This document shows positions 58,626 to 63,245 of a DNA stretch of 64,000 nucleotides, piece after piece. Position numbers and translations under genes: made by a program. The stretch comes from Mesorhizobium sp. Pch-S (GTDB taxonomy: Bacteria; Pseudomonadota; Alphaproteobacteria; Rhizobiales; Rhizobiaceae), in contig NZ_CP029562.1 in assembly GCF_004136315.1 (NCBI RefSeq), forward strand, positions 1,922,001 through 1,986,000, written 5' to 3'. The notes beneath the pieces are model-generated. The model did not search any database. It was not told the DNA's origin and was given only the letters and a program-made list of their open reading frames with translations. Each line of letters starts with the position of its first letter. The stretch's first letter is position 1.

Positions 58626-58702
58626 TGGCGCACCCGACAGGATTCGAACCTGTGACCCCTGCCTTCGGAGGGCAGTACTCTATCCAGCTGAGCTACGGGT
58701 GC
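58626..58702 (-). tRNA. tRNA-Arg (anticodon CCG)
   Basis: Full cloverleaf on the reverse strand with CCA encoded. Acceptor GCACCCG pairs with CGGGTGC; D-arm GCTC...GAGT; anticodon arm CTGCC-CTCCGAA-GGCAG with anticodon CCG; T-arm ACAGG-TTCGAAT-CCTGT. It reads CGG (Arg). Unlike the tRNA-like modules near 62.3-63.2 kb, the elements are in normal order. Confidence 0.96.
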
Positions 58703-58824: not shown

Positions 58825-60438
58825 TCATCTGTTCGGCGTCGGGGTCAGGTCCTCGAAGGCCAGCCCGAACCGCAGAAGATATTTGCGCAGCCTGTCGGCG
58901 TCGTTGCCGCTCGTCTTCTGAAGGCGCGAAACGGCAAAGAGCTCGCGGCCGGCCGCGCTGACCGAAGCGCTTTCGCGGCAGACCTCGATCACCGCCGCCA
59001 GTTGCGCACGGTCGAACAGGTCGATCGCCTCGAGGCGTTCCGCGCCGAGGATCGTCTGCAGCATCCGGTCCGGCGATGCGTCGCCCTCGCCCGACACCCA
59101 TAGCTGCCTGAGGCGGCCGATCTCGTCGCGAACGGTCTGCTCGTTGATGCGCCCTTCCGGCGCCAGCGTCGCCATGCGGGTCACCGATGCCGAGAGATCG
59201 CGAAAATTCGCCCGCCAGGCGGCGTCCGGCGCCATCGCGAAGGCGAGATAAAGGTCGCGGGCCTCCCTGTTGAAGGTCACGTTCTGCCCTTCGCGTTCGG
59301 AAAACCGCCTGAGTTCGAAGTCAAGATTCGGCTCGATGTCTTCGCGGCGATCCTTCAGGGCCGGAAGCCTGAACGTCCACAGGTTGAGACGGGCGAACAG
59401 ATCTTCCCGGAAACGCCCTTCCCTGACCGCAACGGAAAGATCCCTGTTGGTGCCGGCCAGCAACTGGAAGTCCGAAGCGACATCCTGGTCGGCGCCGACC
59501 GGGAGGAAACGCTTTTCCTCGATCGCCCGCAGGCACATGGCTTGTTCGTCAGGACCAAGCTCGCCGATCTCGTCGAGAAACAGCACCCCCTTGTCCGCCG
59601 CCTTCATCAGGCCGGCGCGAGCGGCCTGCGCGCCGGTGAAGGCGCCTTTCACATGGCCGAACAAGGTGGACATCGCCTGGTCGCCGCGCAGCGTCGCGCA
59701 ATTGACTTCGACAAAGGCGCCGCTGACCTGGTGCTGGGCTTTCTTGAGCTCGTAGACGCGCCGGGCAAGCTGCGACTTGCCGGCTCCGGTCGGGCCTGTC
59801 AGAAGCACCGGCGCACGCGAGCGGATCGCGACCTTCTCGATCTGGTCGATCATGGCGTTGAAGGATGGATTGCGGGTGGCGATGCCCGACTTAAGAAAGG
59901 ATGCGGCATCCTCACGCTCGGCGGCGAAGCGCGTCGCGATCGCGTCGTAGCGCGAGAGATCGAGATCGATGATCGAATGGCTGCCGGCGACACTGCCGCC
60001 TTCGCCACGATCCTTCGGCGGCGAGAGCTGCAGCAGCCGCGCCGGGATGAAATGCGCCTCGGTGAGCAGGAACCAGCAGATCTGGGCGACATGTGTGCCG
60101 GTGGTGATGTTGACGAGATAATCCTCGCGGTCCGGATCGAACGCATAGCCGCGGGCAAATGCGTGCAGGCTGGTGTAGACCTCGCTGAAATCCCACGGAT
60201 CCTTGAAGTCGATCACATGCGACCGCACCTCGGTCGCCGGGGAGACGTCGCCAATGTCGGCCGTTACCTGTGCTGCCAGCCCCGCGGCCGATCCGGTGCC
60301 GTGGATCAGTTCGAGCCTGTCGATGAAGAGATCGGGCTGCTGGCAGAGCGCTACGGTCGGCCGCCAGCGCTGCCAGCGCCCGCCTCGCCCCATATCCAGC
60401 GTGGTCCCTAGAAAACCGATGGCGACCCGACGACGCAT
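58825..60438 (-). CDS. rtcR: RtcR, sigma54-dependent activator with CARF-like sensor domain
   Basis: 537 aa. The N-terminal ~180 residues match the RtcR CARF-like regulatory domain (VAIGFLGTTLDMGRGGRWQR, HVIDFKDPWDFSEVYTSLHA, YLVNITTGTHVAQICWFLLT), thought to bind RNA-end-derived ligands such as 2',3'-cyclic-phosphate RNA. The AAA+ domain has Walker A GPTGAGKS (215-222), the sigma54-contacting GAFTGA loop (265-270) and Walker B VLFLDE (285-290). A C-terminal DNA-binding region follows (AGRELFAVSRLQKTSGNDAD). It is divergent from rsr, which it probably activates together with the Y RNA array and rtcB. Confidence 0.95.
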   Translation of the reverse strand: MRRRVAIGFLGTTLDMGRGGRWQRWRPTVALCQQPDLFIDRLELIHGTGSAAGLAAQVTADIGDVSPATEVRSHVIDFKDPWDFSEVYTSLHAFARGYAFDPDREDYLVNITTGTHVAQICWFLLTEAHFIPARLLQLSPPKDRGEGGSVAGSHSIIDLDLSRYDAIATRFAAEREDAASFLKSGIATRNPSFNAMIDQIEKVAIRSRAPVLLTGPTGAGKSQLARRVYELKKAQHQVSGAFVEVNCATLRGDQAMSTLFGHVKGAFTGAQAARAGLMKAADKGVLFLDEIGELGPDEQAMCLRAIEEKRFLPVGADQDVASDFQLLAGTNRDLSVAVREGRFREDLFARLNLWTFRLPALKDRREDIEPNLDFELRRFSEREGQNVTFNREARDLYLAFAMAPDAAWRANFRDLSASVTRMATLAPEGRINEQTVRDEIGRLRQLWVSGEGDASPDRMLQTILGAERLEAIDLFDRAQLAAVIEVCRESASVSAAGRELFAVSRLQKTSGNDADRLRKYLLRFGLAFEDLTPTPNR

Positions 60439-60587: not shown

Positions 60588-60615
60588 TGGCACGCAAGTT
60601 GGCACGCAACTTGGA
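60588..60615 (+). promoter_or_regulatory. Tandem candidate sigma54 promoter of the rsr-Y RNA-rtcB operon
   Basis: TGGCACGCAAG occurs at 60588 and TGGCACGCAAC at 60600, a 12-base direct repeat followed by TTGGA. The sigma54 consensus is TGGCACG-N4-TTGC(A/T). Both copies have a perfect -24 half; the -12 half is TTGG in each. The RtcR gene is divergent, and rtc operons are known sigma54/RtcR targets. The start codon of rsr follows about 35 bases downstream. Confidence 0.6.
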
Positions 60616-60648: not shown

Positions 60649-62223
60649 ATGGCAAACAAATCCGTGTTTGCGACGATCAAGGGAAAGCTGCTCCCGCGTG
60701 CTGACGCCATGAACCATGCCGGTGCCCAGGCCTATGCCCTGACACCGCACCAGGCTCTGGCGCAGCTGGCATCGACGGGAACGATGAACGCGACCTTCTA
60801 TGCCGAGCCGCGGGAGCAGCTGGACGAGGTGCTGAAGCTGGCCTGGCAGGTCGAGCCGGAATTCCTGGCGAAGACCGCCGTGCATGCCTACGAGACCGGC
60901 TACATGAAGGACATGCCGGCGCTGCTGCTGGCCGTGCTCTCCATGATGCAGGGCGACGCCTTCGAACGTGCCTTCGTGCGGGTCGTGAAGAACGGGCGCA
61001 TGCTGCGCAATTTCGTGCAGGTCATGCGCTCCGGCGCGGTCGGACGCAAGTCGCTTGGAACGCGGCCGAAGCGGCTCGTGCTCAACTGGCTCGAGCGTGC
61101 CTCGGACCTCGAGATCATGCGGGCTGCCGTCGGCAATGACCCTTCGCTGGCCGATGTCGTGAAGATGATGCATCCGAAGCCGGTTTCGGCCTCGCGTGCG
61201 GCGCTGTACGGCTACCTGATCGGCAAGCCGCACGACGTGCTGGCGCTGCCGGATCTGGTGAAGGCCTTCGAAGCCTTCAAGCGCGATCCGTCGCTGCCGG
61301 TGCCCGAAGTGCCGTTCCAGATGCTGACCTCGATGCAGCTGACGAAGGCGCATTGGGTGCAGATCGCGGAGACGGCAGGATGGCAGATGCTGCGGCAGAA
61401 CCTCAACACCTTTGCCCGCAACGGCGTGTTCGAGGTGGAGGGTTTCGCCGAGAAACTGGCGGCACGGCTGCGTGATCCGATGGAGGTGAAGCGCGCCCGC
61501 GTCTTCCCCTACCAGTTGATGGTTGCGTTCAACAGTGTCGATGCCGGGGTGCCGGACGTCGTGCGGGATGCATTGCAGGACGCGATGGAAGTAGCGCTCG
61601 GCAATGTGCCCGAGGTGAACGGCCATGTCGTGGTGGCGCCCGACGTGTCGGGCTCGATGAGCTCGCCCGTGACCGGCCACCGCAAGGGGTCGACCTCGGT
61701 CGTGCGCTGCATCGACGTGGCTGCCCTGGTGGCAGCGGCGCTGCTGCGGCGCAACCCGACGGCGAAGGTGTTGCCGTTCGAGAACGATGTGGTGGACGTC
61801 CGCCTCAACGCTCGCGACTCGGTGATGACCAACGCGCAGAAGCTTGCCGCGGTCGGCGGAGGCGGAACCAACTGCTCGGCTCCGCTCGCCCGCCTGGTCA
61901 AGGAGCGCGCCAGGGTCGACCTCGTGGTGTTCGTGTCGGACAACCAGTCCTGGGTGGATGGGACATCCCATCCGCATCAGGGCCATCCGCATCAAGGAAC
62001 GGCGACGATGCAGGAATGGCGCAAGCTCAAGGCGTTGAACCCTGGGGCAAAGCTGGTCTGCATCGACATCCAGCCCTACACCACGGTGCAGGCCAAGCCG
62101 GAAGCCGACATCCTGAATGTCGGCGGGTTCTCCGACCGGGTCTTCGAGGTGGTCGGGACAATGCTCTCCTCGAAGGGCGATCCGGACCATTGGGTCCGCC
62201 ATATCGAGGCGACCGAACTTTAA
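60649..62223 (+). CDS. rsr: Ro60/Rsr homologue, TROVE-domain RNA-binding protein
   Basis: 524-aa ring-shaped RNA-binding protein. The N-terminal ~315 residues are TROVE HEAT-like repeats (FYAEPREQLDEVLKLAWQVE, MPALLLAVLSMMQGDAFERA, SVSASRAALYGYLIGK-type segments, HWVQIAETAGWQMLRQNLNT). The C-terminal von Willebrand A domain carries the MIDAS DxSxS as DVSGSMSS (Asp332, Ser334, Ser336) and the distal metal residues in GGGGTNCSAPL and VVFVSDNQSWVDG. Ro60 binds misfolded RNA through its central hole and Y RNAs on its outer surface. The adjacent Y RNA-like array and the divergent rtcR make the assignment strong. Confidence 0.95.
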   Translation: MANKSVFATIKGKLLPRADAMNHAGAQAYALTPHQALAQLASTGTMNATFYAEPREQLDEVLKLAWQVEPEFLAKTAVHAYETGYMKDMPALLLAVLSMMQGDAFERAFVRVVKNGRMLRNFVQVMRSGAVGRKSLGTRPKRLVLNWLERASDLEIMRAAVGNDPSLADVVKMMHPKPVSASRAALYGYLIGKPHDVLALPDLVKAFEAFKRDPSLPVPEVPFQMLTSMQLTKAHWVQIAETAGWQMLRQNLNTFARNGVFEVEGFAEKLAARLRDPMEVKRARVFPYQLMVAFNSVDAGVPDVVRDALQDAMEVALGNVPEVNGHVVVAPDVSGSMSSPVTGHRKGSTSVVRCIDVAALVAAALLRRNPTAKVLPFENDVVDVRLNARDSVMTNAQKLAAVGGGGTNCSAPLARLVKERARVDLVVFVSDNQSWVDGTSHPHQGHPHQGTATMQEWRKLKALNPGAKLVCIDIQPYTTVQAKPEADILNVGGFSDRVFEVVGTMLSSKGDPDHWVRHIEATEL

Positions 62224-62241: not shown

Positions 62242-62268
62242 GATCCCGGCGGATGACCCGCCGGGATC
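62242..62268 (+). other. Perfect hairpin between rsr and the RNA array
   Basis: GATCCCGGCGG / CCGCCGGGATC with loop ATGAC (62242-62252, 62258-62268), 18 bases after the rsr stop. No T-run follows, so it is more likely an mRNA-stabilising 3' hairpin or processing boundary than a terminator. It would separate the mRNA from the RNA array. Confidence 0.6.
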
Positions 62269-62292
62269 AATGAACGGAGATATCGAGAAAGG

Positions 62293-62444
62293 CATGACGA
62301 ATGCCGATGGAACTACAGGCTGTTACCCTCCAGGTCGCGGGTTCGAATCCCGCCGGATCCACCAGACACGGGTCCGTAGCTCAGTGGTTAGAGCAGGTGC
62401 CGATCCGAACGGACCGGCGACGTTTCATCATTCTTGTCGTCATG
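62293..62444 (+). ncRNA. Y RNA-like module 1 (permuted tRNA-like domain)
   Basis: Closing stem 62293-62300 (CATGACGA) pairs perfectly with 62437-62444. It contains GACGAATG (62296-62303) opposite TCTTGTC (62432-62438), matching the Y RNA Ro60-binding consensus GNCGAANG / CNUUGNC with one G-U. Upper stem 62306-62313 pairs with 62422-62429. Inside: T-arm GCGGG-TTCGAAT-CCCGC (62337-62353), acceptor 3' strand CGGATCC plus ACCA (62354-62364), a GACAC loop, acceptor 5' strand GGGTCCG (62370-62376), TA, and D-arm GCTC...GAGC (62379-62394). This is a tRNA circularly permuted at the anticodon stem. An extra hairpin with GAAC loop lies at 62399-62418. Confidence 0.88.
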
Positions 62445-62473
62445 ACCCTCGAGTTTTGAAAGGCCTGGAAAGA

Positions 62474-62596
62474 CGCGGCGAATGCCGGACGGAACTACAG
62501 CACTCATCGGGCAATCCGCGAGGTTCGACTCCTCGCCTTGCAGGCGCTCTCTGGCACGAGCGGGATCCCGGAGTTTCGTCCATCCTTGTCGCCGCG
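62474..62596 (+). ncRNA. Y RNA-like module 2 (permuted tRNA-like domain, short acceptor)
   Basis: Closing stem 62474-62481 (CGCGGCGA) pairs perfectly with 62589-62596. Ro signature GGCGAATG (62477-62484) opposite CCTTGTC (62584-62590), an exact consensus match. Upper stem 62487-62495 pairs with 62573-62581, with a compensatory change relative to module 1 (U-A to C-G). Inside: an anticodon-stem analogue formed by 62508-62517 and 62563-62570, T-arm CGAGG-TTCGACT-CCTCG (62519-62535), a 4-bp acceptor remnant GCCT-TGC-AGGC (62535-62545), and D-arm GCTC-TCTGGCAC-GAGC (62546-62561) with the GG of the D-loop. Same topology as module 1 with the acceptor reduced to a minihelix. Confidence 0.85.
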
Positions 62597-62607
62597 GCAA
62601 CAAATAT

Positions 62608-62734
62608 CCGGCGAATGCTGGCAGGACTACAGGTAGCGCGCCCGTCGCAAGACGGGAGGTCGGATGTTCAAATCATCCCTTCGCCTTCGGGCGGAGTGGC
62701 GCAGCAGAAACGGTCTTGCCGATCTCGTCGCCGG
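62608..62734 (+). ncRNA. Y RNA-like module 3 (tRNA-like, permuted in the D-loop, UUCG-capped acceptor)
   Basis: Closing stem 62608-62614 (CCGGCGA) pairs with 62728-62734. Ro signature GGCGAATG (62610-62617); the opposite strand reads TCTCGTC (62723-62729), a C in place of the conserved second U. Upper stem 62620-62627 pairs with 62713-62720. Inside, in order: D-stem 3' strand GCGC (62636-62639), a complete anticodon arm CCCGT-CGCAAG-ACGGG (62641-62656, six-base loop), AGGTC, T-arm GGATG-TTCAAAT-CATCC (62662-62678), acceptor CTTCGCC-TTCG-GGCGGAG (62679-62696) closed by a UUCG tetraloop, TG, and D-stem 5' strand GCGC (62699-62702). The Y stem therefore emerges from the D-loop, unlike modules 1-2. 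Confidence 0.86.
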
Positions 62735-62868
62735 TGCGGCGAATGCCTGCGGGACTACAGGGATAGAGCGCCTGCCTTGAGAAAGGCGGGAGGTCGGGTG
62801 TTCAATCCACCCCTTTCCGGATCCTCCGAAAAGTAGCTCAGTACCGTCTCGCAAATCTTGTCGCCGTA
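62735..62868 (+). ncRNA. Y RNA-like module 4 (tRNA-like, permuted in the D-loop)
   Basis: Abuts module 3 with no spacer. Closing stem 62735-62742 pairs with 62861-62868 (one G-U). Ro signature GGCGAATG (62738-62745) opposite TCTTGTC (62856-62862). Upper stem 62748-62755 pairs with 62846-62853. Inside: D-stem 3' strand GAGC (62766-62769), anticodon arm CCTGCC...GGCGGG (62771-62790), AGGTC, T-arm GGGTG-TTCAATC-CACCC (62796-62812), an acceptor-like stem CTTT(C)CGGA-TCC-TCCG(A)AAAG (62813-62833) with one C-A mismatch, TA, and D-stem 5' strand GCTC (62836-62839). Same topology as module 3. Confidence 0.86.
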
Positions 62869-62874
62869 TTCGCG

Positions 62875-62971
62875 GGGAAGACGAATGAATGCAGGACTAC
62901 ATTGGGATTGGCGGTTCGAATCCGCCCGGCGGCTTCCGCCGAATTGTCCTGCAGTGACTTGTCGCCTTCCC
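62875..62971 (+). ncRNA. Y RNA-like module 5 (minimal: T-arm plus minihelix)
   Basis: Closing stem 62875-62884 pairs with 62962-62971 (one A-C mismatch). Ro signature GACGAATG (62880-62887) opposite ACTTGTC (62957-62963). Upper stem TGCAGGAC (62890-62897) pairs perfectly with 62946-62953. Inside: T-arm GGCGG-TTCGAAT-CCGCC (62910-62926) and a 6-bp minihelix CGGCGG-CTT-CCGCCG (62927-62941) in the acceptor position. No D-arm or anticodon arm is seen. It is the shortest module, 97 bases. Confidence 0.83.
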
Positions 62972-63207
62972 GGCCGAATGGCGGATGCAGGCCAGACTCG
63001 CGCATGACCCCGAAAATCGGAACCGATTTTCGGAAAGGATCATGCGCCAAATCAAAGTGTTAGAGCGTCCTTTGCGCATCCAAGTGGACGCGCGGCGCTC
63101 TAAGGTAGACGCGACCTGCGCAGGCAGGTGTCGAAAGACGTGAAGGTTCGTGTCCTTCCTTCGCACCAGTTGCGAAGTGGCGGAACAAGTCTTGCCGATC
63201 CTGGCCG
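62972..63207 (+). ncRNA. Y RNA-like module 6, a permuted tRNA-Leu split by a palindromic repeat
   Basis: 5' part 62972-62998 holds GCCGAATG (62973-62980) and an upper-stem strand GGCCAGAC (62990-62997), which pairs with GTCTTGCC (63189-63196) at 7 of 8 positions. Between them, 62999-63103 is a rhizobial repeat. The rest reads as a tRNA-Leu in permuted order: GGTAGACGCG, anticodon arm ACCTG-CGCAGG-CAGGT, a small variable arm GTC-GAAA-GAC, T-arm GAAGG-TTCGTGT-CCTTC (63142-63158), acceptor CTTCGCA-CCAGT-TGCGAAG (63159-63177, keeping ACCA), then TGGCGGAAC. The closing stem is weaker than in the other modules, so this copy may be decaying. Confidence 0.7.
62999..63103. repeat. Rhizobial palindromic repeat inserted in module 6 (family B with palindrome)
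   Basis: First half is an almost perfect palindrome: GCGCATGA (63000-63007) with TCATGCGC (63040-63047), and inner CCGAAAATCGG / CCGATTTTCGG (63010-63020, 63023-63033). Second half (63060-63103) is bounded by TTAGAGC / GCTCTAA and contains GCGTCC / GGACGC. The second half is the reverse complement of the segment at 55915-55972. Such elements are common in rhizobial intergenic DNA. Confidence 0.8.
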
Positions 63208-63245
63208 CTATTCGGCCATTGTGATCGATTGAAGGGAATGAGGTT

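What the first reader, a model, noticed from the sequence alone, without database searches (positions are those of the whole stretch)
62242..63245. Tandem array of six Y RNA-like modules between rsr and rtcB
Seen: five modules with closing stems that pair over 7-10 bp, each carrying GNCGAANG on the 5' strand opposite a CNUUGNC-like strand, an 8-9 bp upper stem and a tRNA-like interior; a sixth is split by a repeat. The shared motif GAATGC...GGACTACA (GGAACTACA in the first two) recurs six times, weakest in the last. Known: Ro60-binding Y RNAs use this signature, and bacterial Y RNAs (YrlA-type) contain a tRNA mimic. Inference: this is a multi-gene Y RNA locus with very short or no spacers, probably one precursor cut into monomers. 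Six divergent members suggest separate cargo or partners for one Ro60.
Basis: partly seen in the sequence, partly recalled or inferred. Interest (0 to 1): 0.95.

Follow-up and report, generated by a model that had tools for sequence, protein, structure and literature searches.

The report
Y RNA array with permuted-tRNA heads
Six small-RNA-like sequences lie in tandem between a bacterial Ro60 gene and an RNA-ligase gene, and at least four of them read as tRNAs cut open and re-joined at unusual points; they are predicted to be Ro60-bound tRNA look-alikes that would keep tRNA-attacking enzymes off real tRNAs.

Summary
Six Y RNA-like modules (62294-63211) lie between rsr and rtcB, downstream of a divergent rtcR and a sigma-54-type site.

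Beyond it: (1) The array is conserved: 4-7 modules in each of 24 non-identical loci with Rsr over 80% identical (window included); the nine complete ones share the order A-(H or B)-C-D-E-F-G. (2) Heads are circularly permuted tRNAs in two architectures. In A/B heads the Ro-binding stem enters beside the anticodon arm. In D/F/G heads it enters through the D-loop and the anticodon loop is mostly replaced by a tetraloop. RNAalifold found both (A/B and D/F alignments) unaided. (3) In the A/H/B cluster 43 of 72 heads keep an anticodon hairpin (6.5% in shuffles); 45 of 75 have CCA exactly where a tRNA would end. (4) G heads are closest to tRNA-Leu (15 of 15).

Module 6 is split by a dispersed repeat. 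Modules 2 and 5 are not significantly tRNA-like by the rotation test. No transcript, Rsr binding or function was tested. The decoy function is inferred, and PNPase tethering is a close rival. The key primary papers were not readable here.

The parts
58828..60438 (-). rtcR, sigma-54 activator with RtcR domain, divergent from the operon
   Evidence: Pfam RtcR PF06956 258.9 bits (cut-off 23.1) and Sigma54_activat 167.8 bits
60600..60615 (+). sigma-54-type promoter site TGGCACGCAACTTGGA, 49 nt before the rsr ATG
   Evidence: Pattern found 48-69 nt upstream of rsr in 26 of 51 non-identical loci including the window; sequence; not tested experimentally
60649..62223 (+). rsr, bacterial Ro60 orthologue (524 aa)
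   Evidence: Pfam vWA_Ro60 70.3 bits, TROVE 28.0 (cut-off 23); PDB 2nvo E 1.9e-21
62294..62443 (+). Module 1 (type A): Y stem plus permuted tRNA head; anticodon hairpin AGG-CUGUUAC-CCU 62317-62329, T arm 62337-62353, acceptor 62354-62360/62370-62376, discriminator A + CCA 62361-62364, linker 62365-62369, D arm 62379-62394, extra hairpin 62399-62418
   Evidence: (rotation z 9.2); RF02553 50.4 bits
62475..62595 (+). Module 2 (type C): Y stem, T arm 62519-62535, D-arm-like hairpin 62546-62561; tRNA likeness not significant (z 1.3)
   Evidence: the cluster holds 31 modules, this one included; RF02553 20.5 bits
62608..62734 (+). Module 3 (type D): Y stem enters the D-loop; D-loop/D 3' strand 62632-62639, anticodon stem capped by GCAA 62641-62656, T arm 62662-62678, acceptor 62680-62685/62690-62695, D 5' strand 62699-62704
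   Evidence: (z 5.2)
62736..62867 (+). Module 4 (type F): D-loop-attached head; D-loop/D 3' strand 62760-62769, anticodon stem capped by GAGA 62771-62790, T arm 62796-62812, acceptor 62813-62833, D 5' strand 62836-62842
   Evidence: (z 9.2); RF02553 31.7 bits
62878..62968 (+). Module 5 (type E): Y stem plus T-arm/acceptor minihelix without D arm (T arm 62910-62926, acceptor hairpin 62927-62941); rotation test borderline (z 2.1, equals best shuffle)
   Evidence: RF02553 48.6 bits
62978..63211 (+). Module 6 (type G): tRNA-Leu-like, D-loop-attached head (D 3' 63104-63112, capped anticodon stem 63115-63128, variable arm 63129-63140, T arm 63142-63158, acceptor 63159-63177, D 5' 63179-63185), split by a repeat
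   Evidence: (Leu_TAG best, z 5.7); too long for the rotation test
62999..63102 (+). dispersed repeat inserted in module 6, in place of ACA of the ACUACA motif; absent from L006
   Evidence: 47 matches in the genome, itself included; boundaries against L006; weak BASRCI27 hit, 29.4 bits, below its gathering score
63246..64000 (+). rtcB, RNA ligase (462 aa; runs past the window end)
   Evidence: PF01139 25 bits on the truncated part, below the cut-off of 27; full ORF L118:10247-11635

Best explanation
Between the Ro60 gene rsr and the RNA-ligase gene rtcB this chromosome carries six tandem Y RNA-like sequences, at least four of them with heads that read as circularly permuted tRNAs, and they are predicted to be co-transcribed, cut into monomers, bound by Rsr and to serve as a panel of tRNA decoys that would occupy tRNA-attacking enzymes such as anticodon nucleases while broken tRNAs are repaired.

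Shown: the conserved array and its gene neighbours; the Ro-binding-type stems with compensatory changes; two head architectures. In A/B heads the Y stem lies next to the anticodon arm, and many heads of the A/H/B cluster keep a 7-nt anticodon loop and an in-line discriminator-CCA. In D/F/G heads the Y stem lies in the D-loop and the anticodon stem is mostly capped by a tetraloop. G heads are closest to tRNA-Leu.

Inferred: transcription from the sigma-54 site under RtcR when tRNAs are broken (RtcR's ligand is known from Salmonella), processing at the short spacers, Rsr binding, and the decoy action. My confidence is about 0.93 in the RNA identity and permuted-tRNA anatomy and about 0.4 in the decoy function.
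For: Anatomy: rotation of each head through all positions against 40 tRNAs of this genome (one per anticodon found; no Ile in the set) puts the Y-stem junction in the D-loop for 51 of 52 D/F, 14 of 14 G (1 of 15 too long) and 1 of 1 Massilia modules. For A/H/B it lies at position 26 or in the anticodon arm in 60 of 72 (3 of 75 too long), with 10 beyond it and 2 in the D 3' strand. Best rotation against equally maximised shuffles: z 9.2, 5.2, 9.2 for window modules 1, 3, 4; 15.3 for a G head; 9.1 for Massilia.

RNAalifold, given no structure, predicts the D-loop architecture (A1, 25 of the D/F modules) and the 3-bp/7-nt anticodon hairpin (A2, 20 A and B modules). 99.4% and 99.8% of cells pair, with 15 of 29 and 12 of 30 pairs changed on both sides; 0 of 500 shuffles reach these values.

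Decoy: anticodon hairpins in 43 of 72 A/H/B heads against 6.5% in shuffles; exact anticodon loops of own tRNAs in 18 of 72 against 2.07 expected; 4-nt caps in 45 of 63 D-loop heads. The operon's activator RtcR binds anticodon-cleaved 5' tRNA fragments in Salmonella, and the authors raise the possibility that YrlA's tRNA-like domain competitively inhibits the nuclease (PMC7790460, passages).
Against: No transcript, RNP or cleavage data. Modules 2 (C) and 5 (E) are not significantly tRNA-like by rotation (z 1.3 and 2.1), yet type C is a cluster of 31 modules with a strongly kept hairpin, which a pure tRNA-decoy idea does not explain. Most H heads lack the anticodon hairpin (list of misses). Isotype assignment is firm only for G (Leu), the anticodon loop of B (Leu CAG) and some single heads such as L119_3 (Lys); D/F heads spread over many isotypes. 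In Salmonella, fragments of YrlA were not detected and inhibition was only proposed. No anticodon nuclease was sought in this genome. rtcA (PF01137) was not found in the genome, so the repair pathway differs from Salmonella's. PNPase tethering is the only Y RNA function that the passages I read report as shown in a bacterium.
Confidence: 0.5

Rival explanations
1. The heads are tethers: each docks Rsr onto PNPase or another tRNA-binding enzyme, making several RYPER-like machines for decay of structured RNA. Head variety tunes substrate or partner choice and no decoy action is involved.
For: D. radiodurans Rsr is tethered by Y RNA to PNPase (PMC7790460, passages; PMC4726728, passages). PMC8394870 (passages) describes the tRNA-like domain as the PNPase-binding part.
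Against: One good head would do for one exonuclease. PNPase binding does not obviously call for retained anticodon loops (43 of 72), exact tRNA loop sequences (18 of 72), an in-line CCA (45 of 75) or tetraloop caps on the rest (45 of 63).
Confidence: 0.33
2. A-type heads are processed like permuted tRNA precursors: RNase P and a 3' nuclease remove the linker between CCA and the 5' acceptor strand, leaving a nicked tRNA-like Y RNA with a free CCA end that could be aminoacylated or read by CCA-end enzymes.
For: CCA exactly at positions 74-76 in 45 of 75 A/H/B heads against 4 of 53 D/F heads at the same offset. In 4 of 24 close loci the linker holds about 30-90 extra nt, right after the CCA (CCC in one). 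11 of 13 heads with G3:U70 also have A73, against 10 of 62 others.
Against: CCA is missing in some relatives (CCC in L026 and L015, CCG in L012), and the D-loop-attached heads close the acceptor with short loops. The triplet could be a remnant of the tRNA of origin. Counts are of related sequences.
Confidence: 0.15
3. The heads only use the T-arm/acceptor/D-arm fold as a stable cap that protects the RNA and attracts tRNA-modifying enzymes; identity and variety of heads are neutral drift after duplication.
For: PMC8394870 (passages) reports that YrlA is a substrate of DusA and TruB. D/F heads match many isotypes. Single modules are absent from some close loci and F precedes E in 4 of 24.
Against: The nine complete arrays share one order; 23 of 24 loci keep UGU at loop positions 33-35 of head A while positions 36-38 vary; tRNA-Leu is the best match of 15 of 15 G heads.
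Confidence: 0.15
4. The region is a graveyard of tRNA fragments or repeats, not RNA genes.
For: Module 6 is split by a dispersed repeat; several relatives lack single modules.
Against: Paired cells at 99.4-99.8% with compensatory changes; modules found in loci whose Rsr is 52-97% identical, 1-7 per locus.
Confidence: 0.03

Closest known systems
YrlA Y RNA (Rfam RF02553; Salmonella, Mycobacterium)
   Same: Ro-binding stem with GCGAAUG opposite CUUGUCGC, ACUAC motif, T arm then acceptor then D arm (permuted order), location beside rsr and rtcB
   Different: All hits below the gathering score. The Rfam consensus continues the Y stem as a 4-bp anticodon-stem mimic. Here A/B heads keep a separate anticodon hairpin beside the Y stem, and D/F/G heads attach the Y stem in the D-loop. 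Up to 7 per locus.
Salmonella rsr-yrlBA-rtcBA RNA repair operon with RtcR (PMC7790460, passages)
   Same: Gene order rtcR / rsr - Y RNAs - rtcB and a sigma-54 activator
   Different: 4-7 Y RNAs instead of 2 in the closest loci; no rtcA (PF01137) in this genome. In a 2.2-kb Salmonella-type record the first RNA reads as anticodon-attached (22.0) and the second gives only a weak D-loop reading (15.0, below the best shuffle score of 17.3 seen for another head).
D. radiodurans Y RNA/Rsr/PNPase (RYPER)
   Same: Rsr orthologue (2nvo) and a Y-type stem
   Different: Partner not known here; heads are permuted tRNAs
Permuted tRNA genes of algae and archaea (recalled, no call)
   Same: 3' half before 5' half with a linker in the acceptor region
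   Different: Not evidently a functional tRNA: a Ro-binding stem joins the break, and the anticodon arm is shortened or capped
Permuted tmRNA (RF04321)
   Same: T arm, acceptor and CCA in permuted order (28.4 bits on module 1)
   Different: Below the gathering score of 47; only model positions 36-95 of 213 match

Membership tests
Bacterial Y RNAs (general) | Encoded next to a Ro60/Rsr gene | tested here: met
   rsr directly upstream; modules in the rsr-downstream gap of 51 non-identical loci
Bacterial Y RNAs (general) | Outer stem with conserved CGAAUG / CUUGUCG strands plus upper stem | tested here: met
   All six modules, module 6 with altered strands; compensatory changes
Bacterial Y RNAs (general) | RNA is made and bound by Rsr | not testable with these tools
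   No RNA-seq or pull-down data
YrlA (RF02553) | Score at or above the Rfam gathering score of 69 | tested here: not met
   50.4, 48.6, 31.7, 20.5 bits; modules 3 and 6 not listed
YrlA (RF02553) | Y stem continues in place of the anticodon stem | tested here: not met
   Modules 3, 4, 6 attach in the D-loop; module 1 keeps an anticodon hairpin beside the Y stem; modules 2 and 5 not resolved
YrlA (RF02553) | tRNA-like domain with T arm, acceptor and D arm | tested here: met
   Modules 1, 3, 4, 6; modules 2 and 5 inconclusive (z 1.3, 2.1)
RNA repair operon (rtcR-rtcB type) | Divergent rtcR plus sigma-54 site before the operon | tested here: met
RNA repair operon (rtcR-rtcB type) | rtcA next to rtcB | tested here: not met
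   PF01137 has no match at E 0.001 in the whole genome; the control search finds it in 5 of 14 genomes, E. coli among them
Permuted tRNA gene | Gives a functional tRNA after processing | not testable with these tools
   Anticodon arm shortened to 3 bp or capped; a Y stem bridges the break

The most novel reading that the evidence does not exclude
Ro60 loci carry a library of permuted tRNA decoys in two architectures: anticodon-bearing heads (Asn, Asp, Tyr, His, Lys, Leu type) that bait anticodon nucleases, and tetraloop-capped, D-loop-attached heads that cannot be cut and block them. Ro60 holds the set together while RtcB mends real tRNAs, and type A heads mature into split tRNAs with a free CCA end.
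Probability: 0.2. Interest if true: 0.93.

Novelty: new variant of a known kind. Interest (0 to 1): 0.78.

Why it matters
What bacterial Y RNAs do beyond D. radiodurans is an open question. An array of up to seven heads, several of which read as tRNAs opened at a defined point, turns this into testable questions: which enzyme sees a tRNA whose anticodon is kept, capped or missing, and why one Ro60 needs the set. It also suggests why some Y RNAs may not look tRNA-like: read from the D-loop break they do.

Tried and rejected
Rejected: tmRNA (27.6-28.4 bits, below 47; only T arm/acceptor/CCA match). Ordinary tRNA genes: ARAGORN finds only tRNA-Arg(CCG) at 58626-58702 in the window. Pseudo-tRNA debris (covariation). 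Internal promoters or terminators: no sigma-70 hit and one minus-strand terminator-like site at the start of rsr. Two further RF02553 hits in the genome at 19.9 and 19.8 bits overlap real tRNAs; at the E-value limit of 1 used there the family also rang in 13 of 14 control genomes, never over the cut-off, so such scores mean little.

Weak or negative: module 2/C and module 5/E in the rotation test; isotype of D/F heads (many different best isotypes); Myxococcus phage Mx1 next to its Ro60-like gene (one low-scoring hit over an annotated tRNA-Gly). Two of the seven UUCAGGU loop matches (L017_2, L032_2) lie outside the hairpin and are probably accidental. 24 of the 225 clustered modules fall in small groups or singletons outside the named types and were not rotated; some of them (for example L035_7, L037_5), and low scorers in L120, L122, L124, L126 and L127, may be false hits of the finder. 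The first hand-written topology caller labelled 6 D/F modules as anticodon-attached and was replaced by the rotation test. I made no protein structure prediction, no Rfam scan of the relatives and no anticodon-nuclease co-occurrence test.
Full report
What is there. The window's right end holds rtcR on the minus strand (58828-60438), a sigma-54-type site at 60600-60615, rsr (60649-62223) and rtcB (from 63246, 462 aa in the whole genome). Rsr carries the Ro60 vWA domain and matches D. radiodurans Rsr (2nvo, E 1.9e-21). The RNA cyclase rtcA (PF01137) has no match in the genome. The genome is a single 6.6-Mb contig. The closest named locus returned is from Mesorhizobium sp. IRAMC:0171 (Rsr 97% identical). 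The 1022-nt gap between rsr and rtcB holds six Y RNA-like modules at 62294-62443, 62475-62595, 62608-62734, 62736-62867, 62878-62968 and 62978-63211. Rfam YrlA hits four of them, all below the gathering score.

Conservation. Rsr was found in 29 of 397 genomes of the order sample, 21 of 146 of the genus, 10 of 398 of the phylum sample, 7 of 385 of the class sample and 4 of 369 of a second class; these samples overlap. It is an accessory gene. 66 loci (the window, 21 named, 44 unnamed) were examined after leaving out L027 (the window's own) and three partial loci (L054-L056); 15 gaps duplicated others, which left 51. The finder gives 230 modules there, 44 in 255 dinucleotide shuffles and 8 on the reverse strand. 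225 modules, after dropping those that scored under 11 but keeping the window's six, fell into five large clusters: A/H/B 75, D/F 52, C 31, E 26, G 15; the other 26 were singletons or small groups, the window's module 6 and the Massilia head among them. The 24 loci with Rsr over 80% identical (window included) carry 4-7 modules each. The nine complete ones all read A-(H or B)-C-D-E-F-G; in 4 of 24 (window, L007, L012, L022) F precedes E. The window reads A-C-D-F-E-G. Slot 2 holds one of two different heads (H or B), which looks like a head swap.

Permuted tRNA heads. Each head was rotated through all positions and aligned to 40 tRNAs of this genome, one per anticodon recovered; the set is incomplete (no Ile). 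Median score rises from 9.2 to 30.0 (A/H/B, 72 of 75), 10.1 to 21.1 (D/F, 52 of 52), 21.2 to 33.8 (G, 14 of 15), 8.2 to 13.8 (C, 31) and 6.1 to 11.8 (E, 26). The Y-stem junction then lies in the D-loop in 51 of 52 D/F and 14 of 14 G heads, and at position 26 or in the anticodon arm in 60 of 72 A/H/B heads; in C it lies mostly in the anticodon arm and in E it is scattered. A Massilia locus (betaproteobacterium) gives a D-loop junction (30.0), and a locus outside the class gives a Leu-like D-loop head (L119_4, 21.75). Shuffles maximised in the same way were run for 7 of 225 modules (12 shuffles each, every second rotation). Modules 1, 3 and 4 of the window, a G head and the Massilia head exceed all their shuffles (z 5.2-15.3); modules 2 (11.9, best shuffle 12.5) and 5 (10.6, best shuffle 10.6) do not. 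Module 6 was too long for the rotation test because of its insert; un-permuted by script its best match is tRNA-Leu(TAG), z 5.7 against 60 shuffles.

Structure by covariation. On 25 chosen D/F modules (of 52) RNAalifold, given no structure, predicts the outer stem, the upper stem, a D-stem (columns 31-34 with 104-107; one pair AU 15 / CG 10; 2 cells unpaired in each of two pairs), an anticodon-like stem and the T stem, but no acceptor helix. 99.4% of cells pair, 15 of 29 pairs change on both sides, and 0 of 500 shuffles reach this. On 20 chosen A and B modules (16 A, 4 B) it predicts a 3-bp stem with a 7-nt loop right after ACUAC (columns 24-26 with 34-36; one pair GC 16 / CG 4), T stem and 7-bp acceptor, but no D stem in the consensus; 99.8% of cells pair and 12 of 30 pairs change on both sides. 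One of the five measures for A2 (further pair types) was reached by 64 of 500 shuffles. The rows are related. A wider count on all members of each cluster is (no shuffles); its weakest helices are the E T-stem (75% paired, probably misaligned) and a tentative C helix (80%).

Anticodons kept or capped. In 43 of 72 A/H/B heads (3 of 75 not assessable) a stem of at least 3 bp with a 7-nt loop and U33 follows ACUAC, against 6.5% in shuffles; in D/F it is 0 of 51, in G 0 of 15, in C 1 of 30; most H heads are among the misses. 18 of 72 contain the exact 7-nt anticodon loop of one of the genome's tRNAs (Leu CAG 7, Asp 3, Asn 2, Lys CUU 2, His 2, Tyr 1, Met 1) against 2.07 expected; D/F (1, expected 1.46), C (2, 0.79) and G (1, 0.86) are near chance. 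Two of the seven Leu matches are probably accidental. The window's module 1 has CUGUUAC, one base off the Asn loop CUGUUAA. UGU at positions 33-35 is kept in 23 of 24 close loci while positions 36-38 vary. That is the recognition core recalled for tRNA-guanine transglycosylase and colicin E5-type nucleases; this link is recall, not a test. L119_3 is the clearest single case: tRNA-Lys(UUU) likeness 44.35 with the loop CUUUUAA. In D-loop heads the corresponding hairpin has a 4-nt loop in 45 of 63 measured modules (GAAA 18, GCAA 7; 6 of 69 could not be parsed), and a 7-nt loop in 2.

The CCA. In 45 of 75 A/H/B heads the triplet at exactly tRNA positions 74-76 is CCA, against 4 of 53 D/F heads at the same offset. 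In 4 of 24 close loci (L009, L015, L016, L020) about 30-90 nt of extra sequence sit in the linker right after the CCA (CCC in L015); the other 20 have module 1 at 123-150 nt. G3:U70 occurs in 13 heads and A73 in 11 of these, against 10 of 62 other heads. This combination is the alanine identity recalled from textbooks; the rows are related and 15 heads have A3:U70 with G73 and CCA instead.

How it most likely works. [quoted passage not shown] The authors implicate the operon in repair of damaged tRNAs and raise the possibility that YrlA's tRNA-like domain competitively inhibits the anticodon nuclease (PMC7790460, passages). A panel of heads, some with anticodon loops and some with capped anticodon stems, fits that proposal better than a single exonuclease tether does. 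All steps from transcription onward are inferred here. Tethering to PNPase (PMC8394870 and PMC4726728, passages) is the main rival and the two are not exclusive.

What is known. Nine full-text searches of the held library (lists capped at 5-20 rows, judged by title and start of abstract) listed no paper on D-loop-attached Y RNAs, retained anticodon loops or Mesorhizobium Y RNA arrays. I read passages only of PMC7790460, PMC8394870, PMC12282133 and PMC4726728. The main primary papers (Chen 2014; Sim and Wolin 2018; Wang 2018) are not held, so nothing of them was seen. From recall, Chen 2014 already reports Y RNAs near Ro60 in over 250 species with at least one tRNA-like Y RNA per species, so arrays and tRNA likeness as such are not new.

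Verdict. Real, well-conserved Y RNA array. I file the modules as bacterial Y RNAs by stem and linkage, not as Rfam YrlA members, because the score and topology tests fail. The novelty lies in the second, D-loop-attached architecture, the kept anticodon loops and CCA, and the ordered variety of heads.

Noticed in passing
window 62999-63102: Dispersed repeat with 47 matches in the genome (itself included), about 20 of them near full length, inserted in module 6; it folds into two strong hairpins and weakly matches Brucella sRNA CI27 in Rfam.
   Followed up: partly
window 62242-62268: Perfect hairpin GATCCCGGCGG...CCGCCGGGATC just after the rsr stop and before module 1, without a T run; possible processing or attenuation element.
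   Followed up: no
L009, L015, L016, L020, module 1: About 30-90 nt of extra sequence inserted in the linker between CCA (CCC in L015) and the 5' acceptor strand.
   Followed up: partly
A/H/B heads, 75 modules: G3:U70 and A73 go together (11 of 13 against 10 of 62), including the window's module 1; could be an alanine-type acceptor signature.
   Followed up: partly
window 62546-62561 and type C modules: The hairpin GCTCTCTGGCACGAGC is unchanged in 25 of 31 type C heads although the window's type C head is not significantly tRNA-like by rotation.
   Followed up: partly
whole genome: No rtcA homologue (PF01137) although rtcR, rsr and rtcB are present; the operon may work without the RNA cyclase.
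   Followed up: partly
L119 downstream of rsr: Three modules are followed within a few to a dozen bases by runs of six or more T, and one Y stem of roughly 60 nt seems to have no head; monomer terminators may exist in this lineage.
   Followed up: no
L133:924-1034 (Salmonella-type record): The second Y RNA gives a weak D-loop-attached reading (15.0); it may be a reduced D-loop head.
   Followed up: partly
L134:4058-4835 (Rhizobium etli CIAT 652 plasmid pA): Three modules in a stretch without a listed gene (the PLSDB table omits RNA genes) between rsr and the downstream gene; a named test strain. rsr relatives also occur in 71 plasmid records.
   Followed up: partly
window 58626-58702: tRNA-Arg(CCG) gene on the minus strand, just beyond the 3' end of rtcR.
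   Followed up: no
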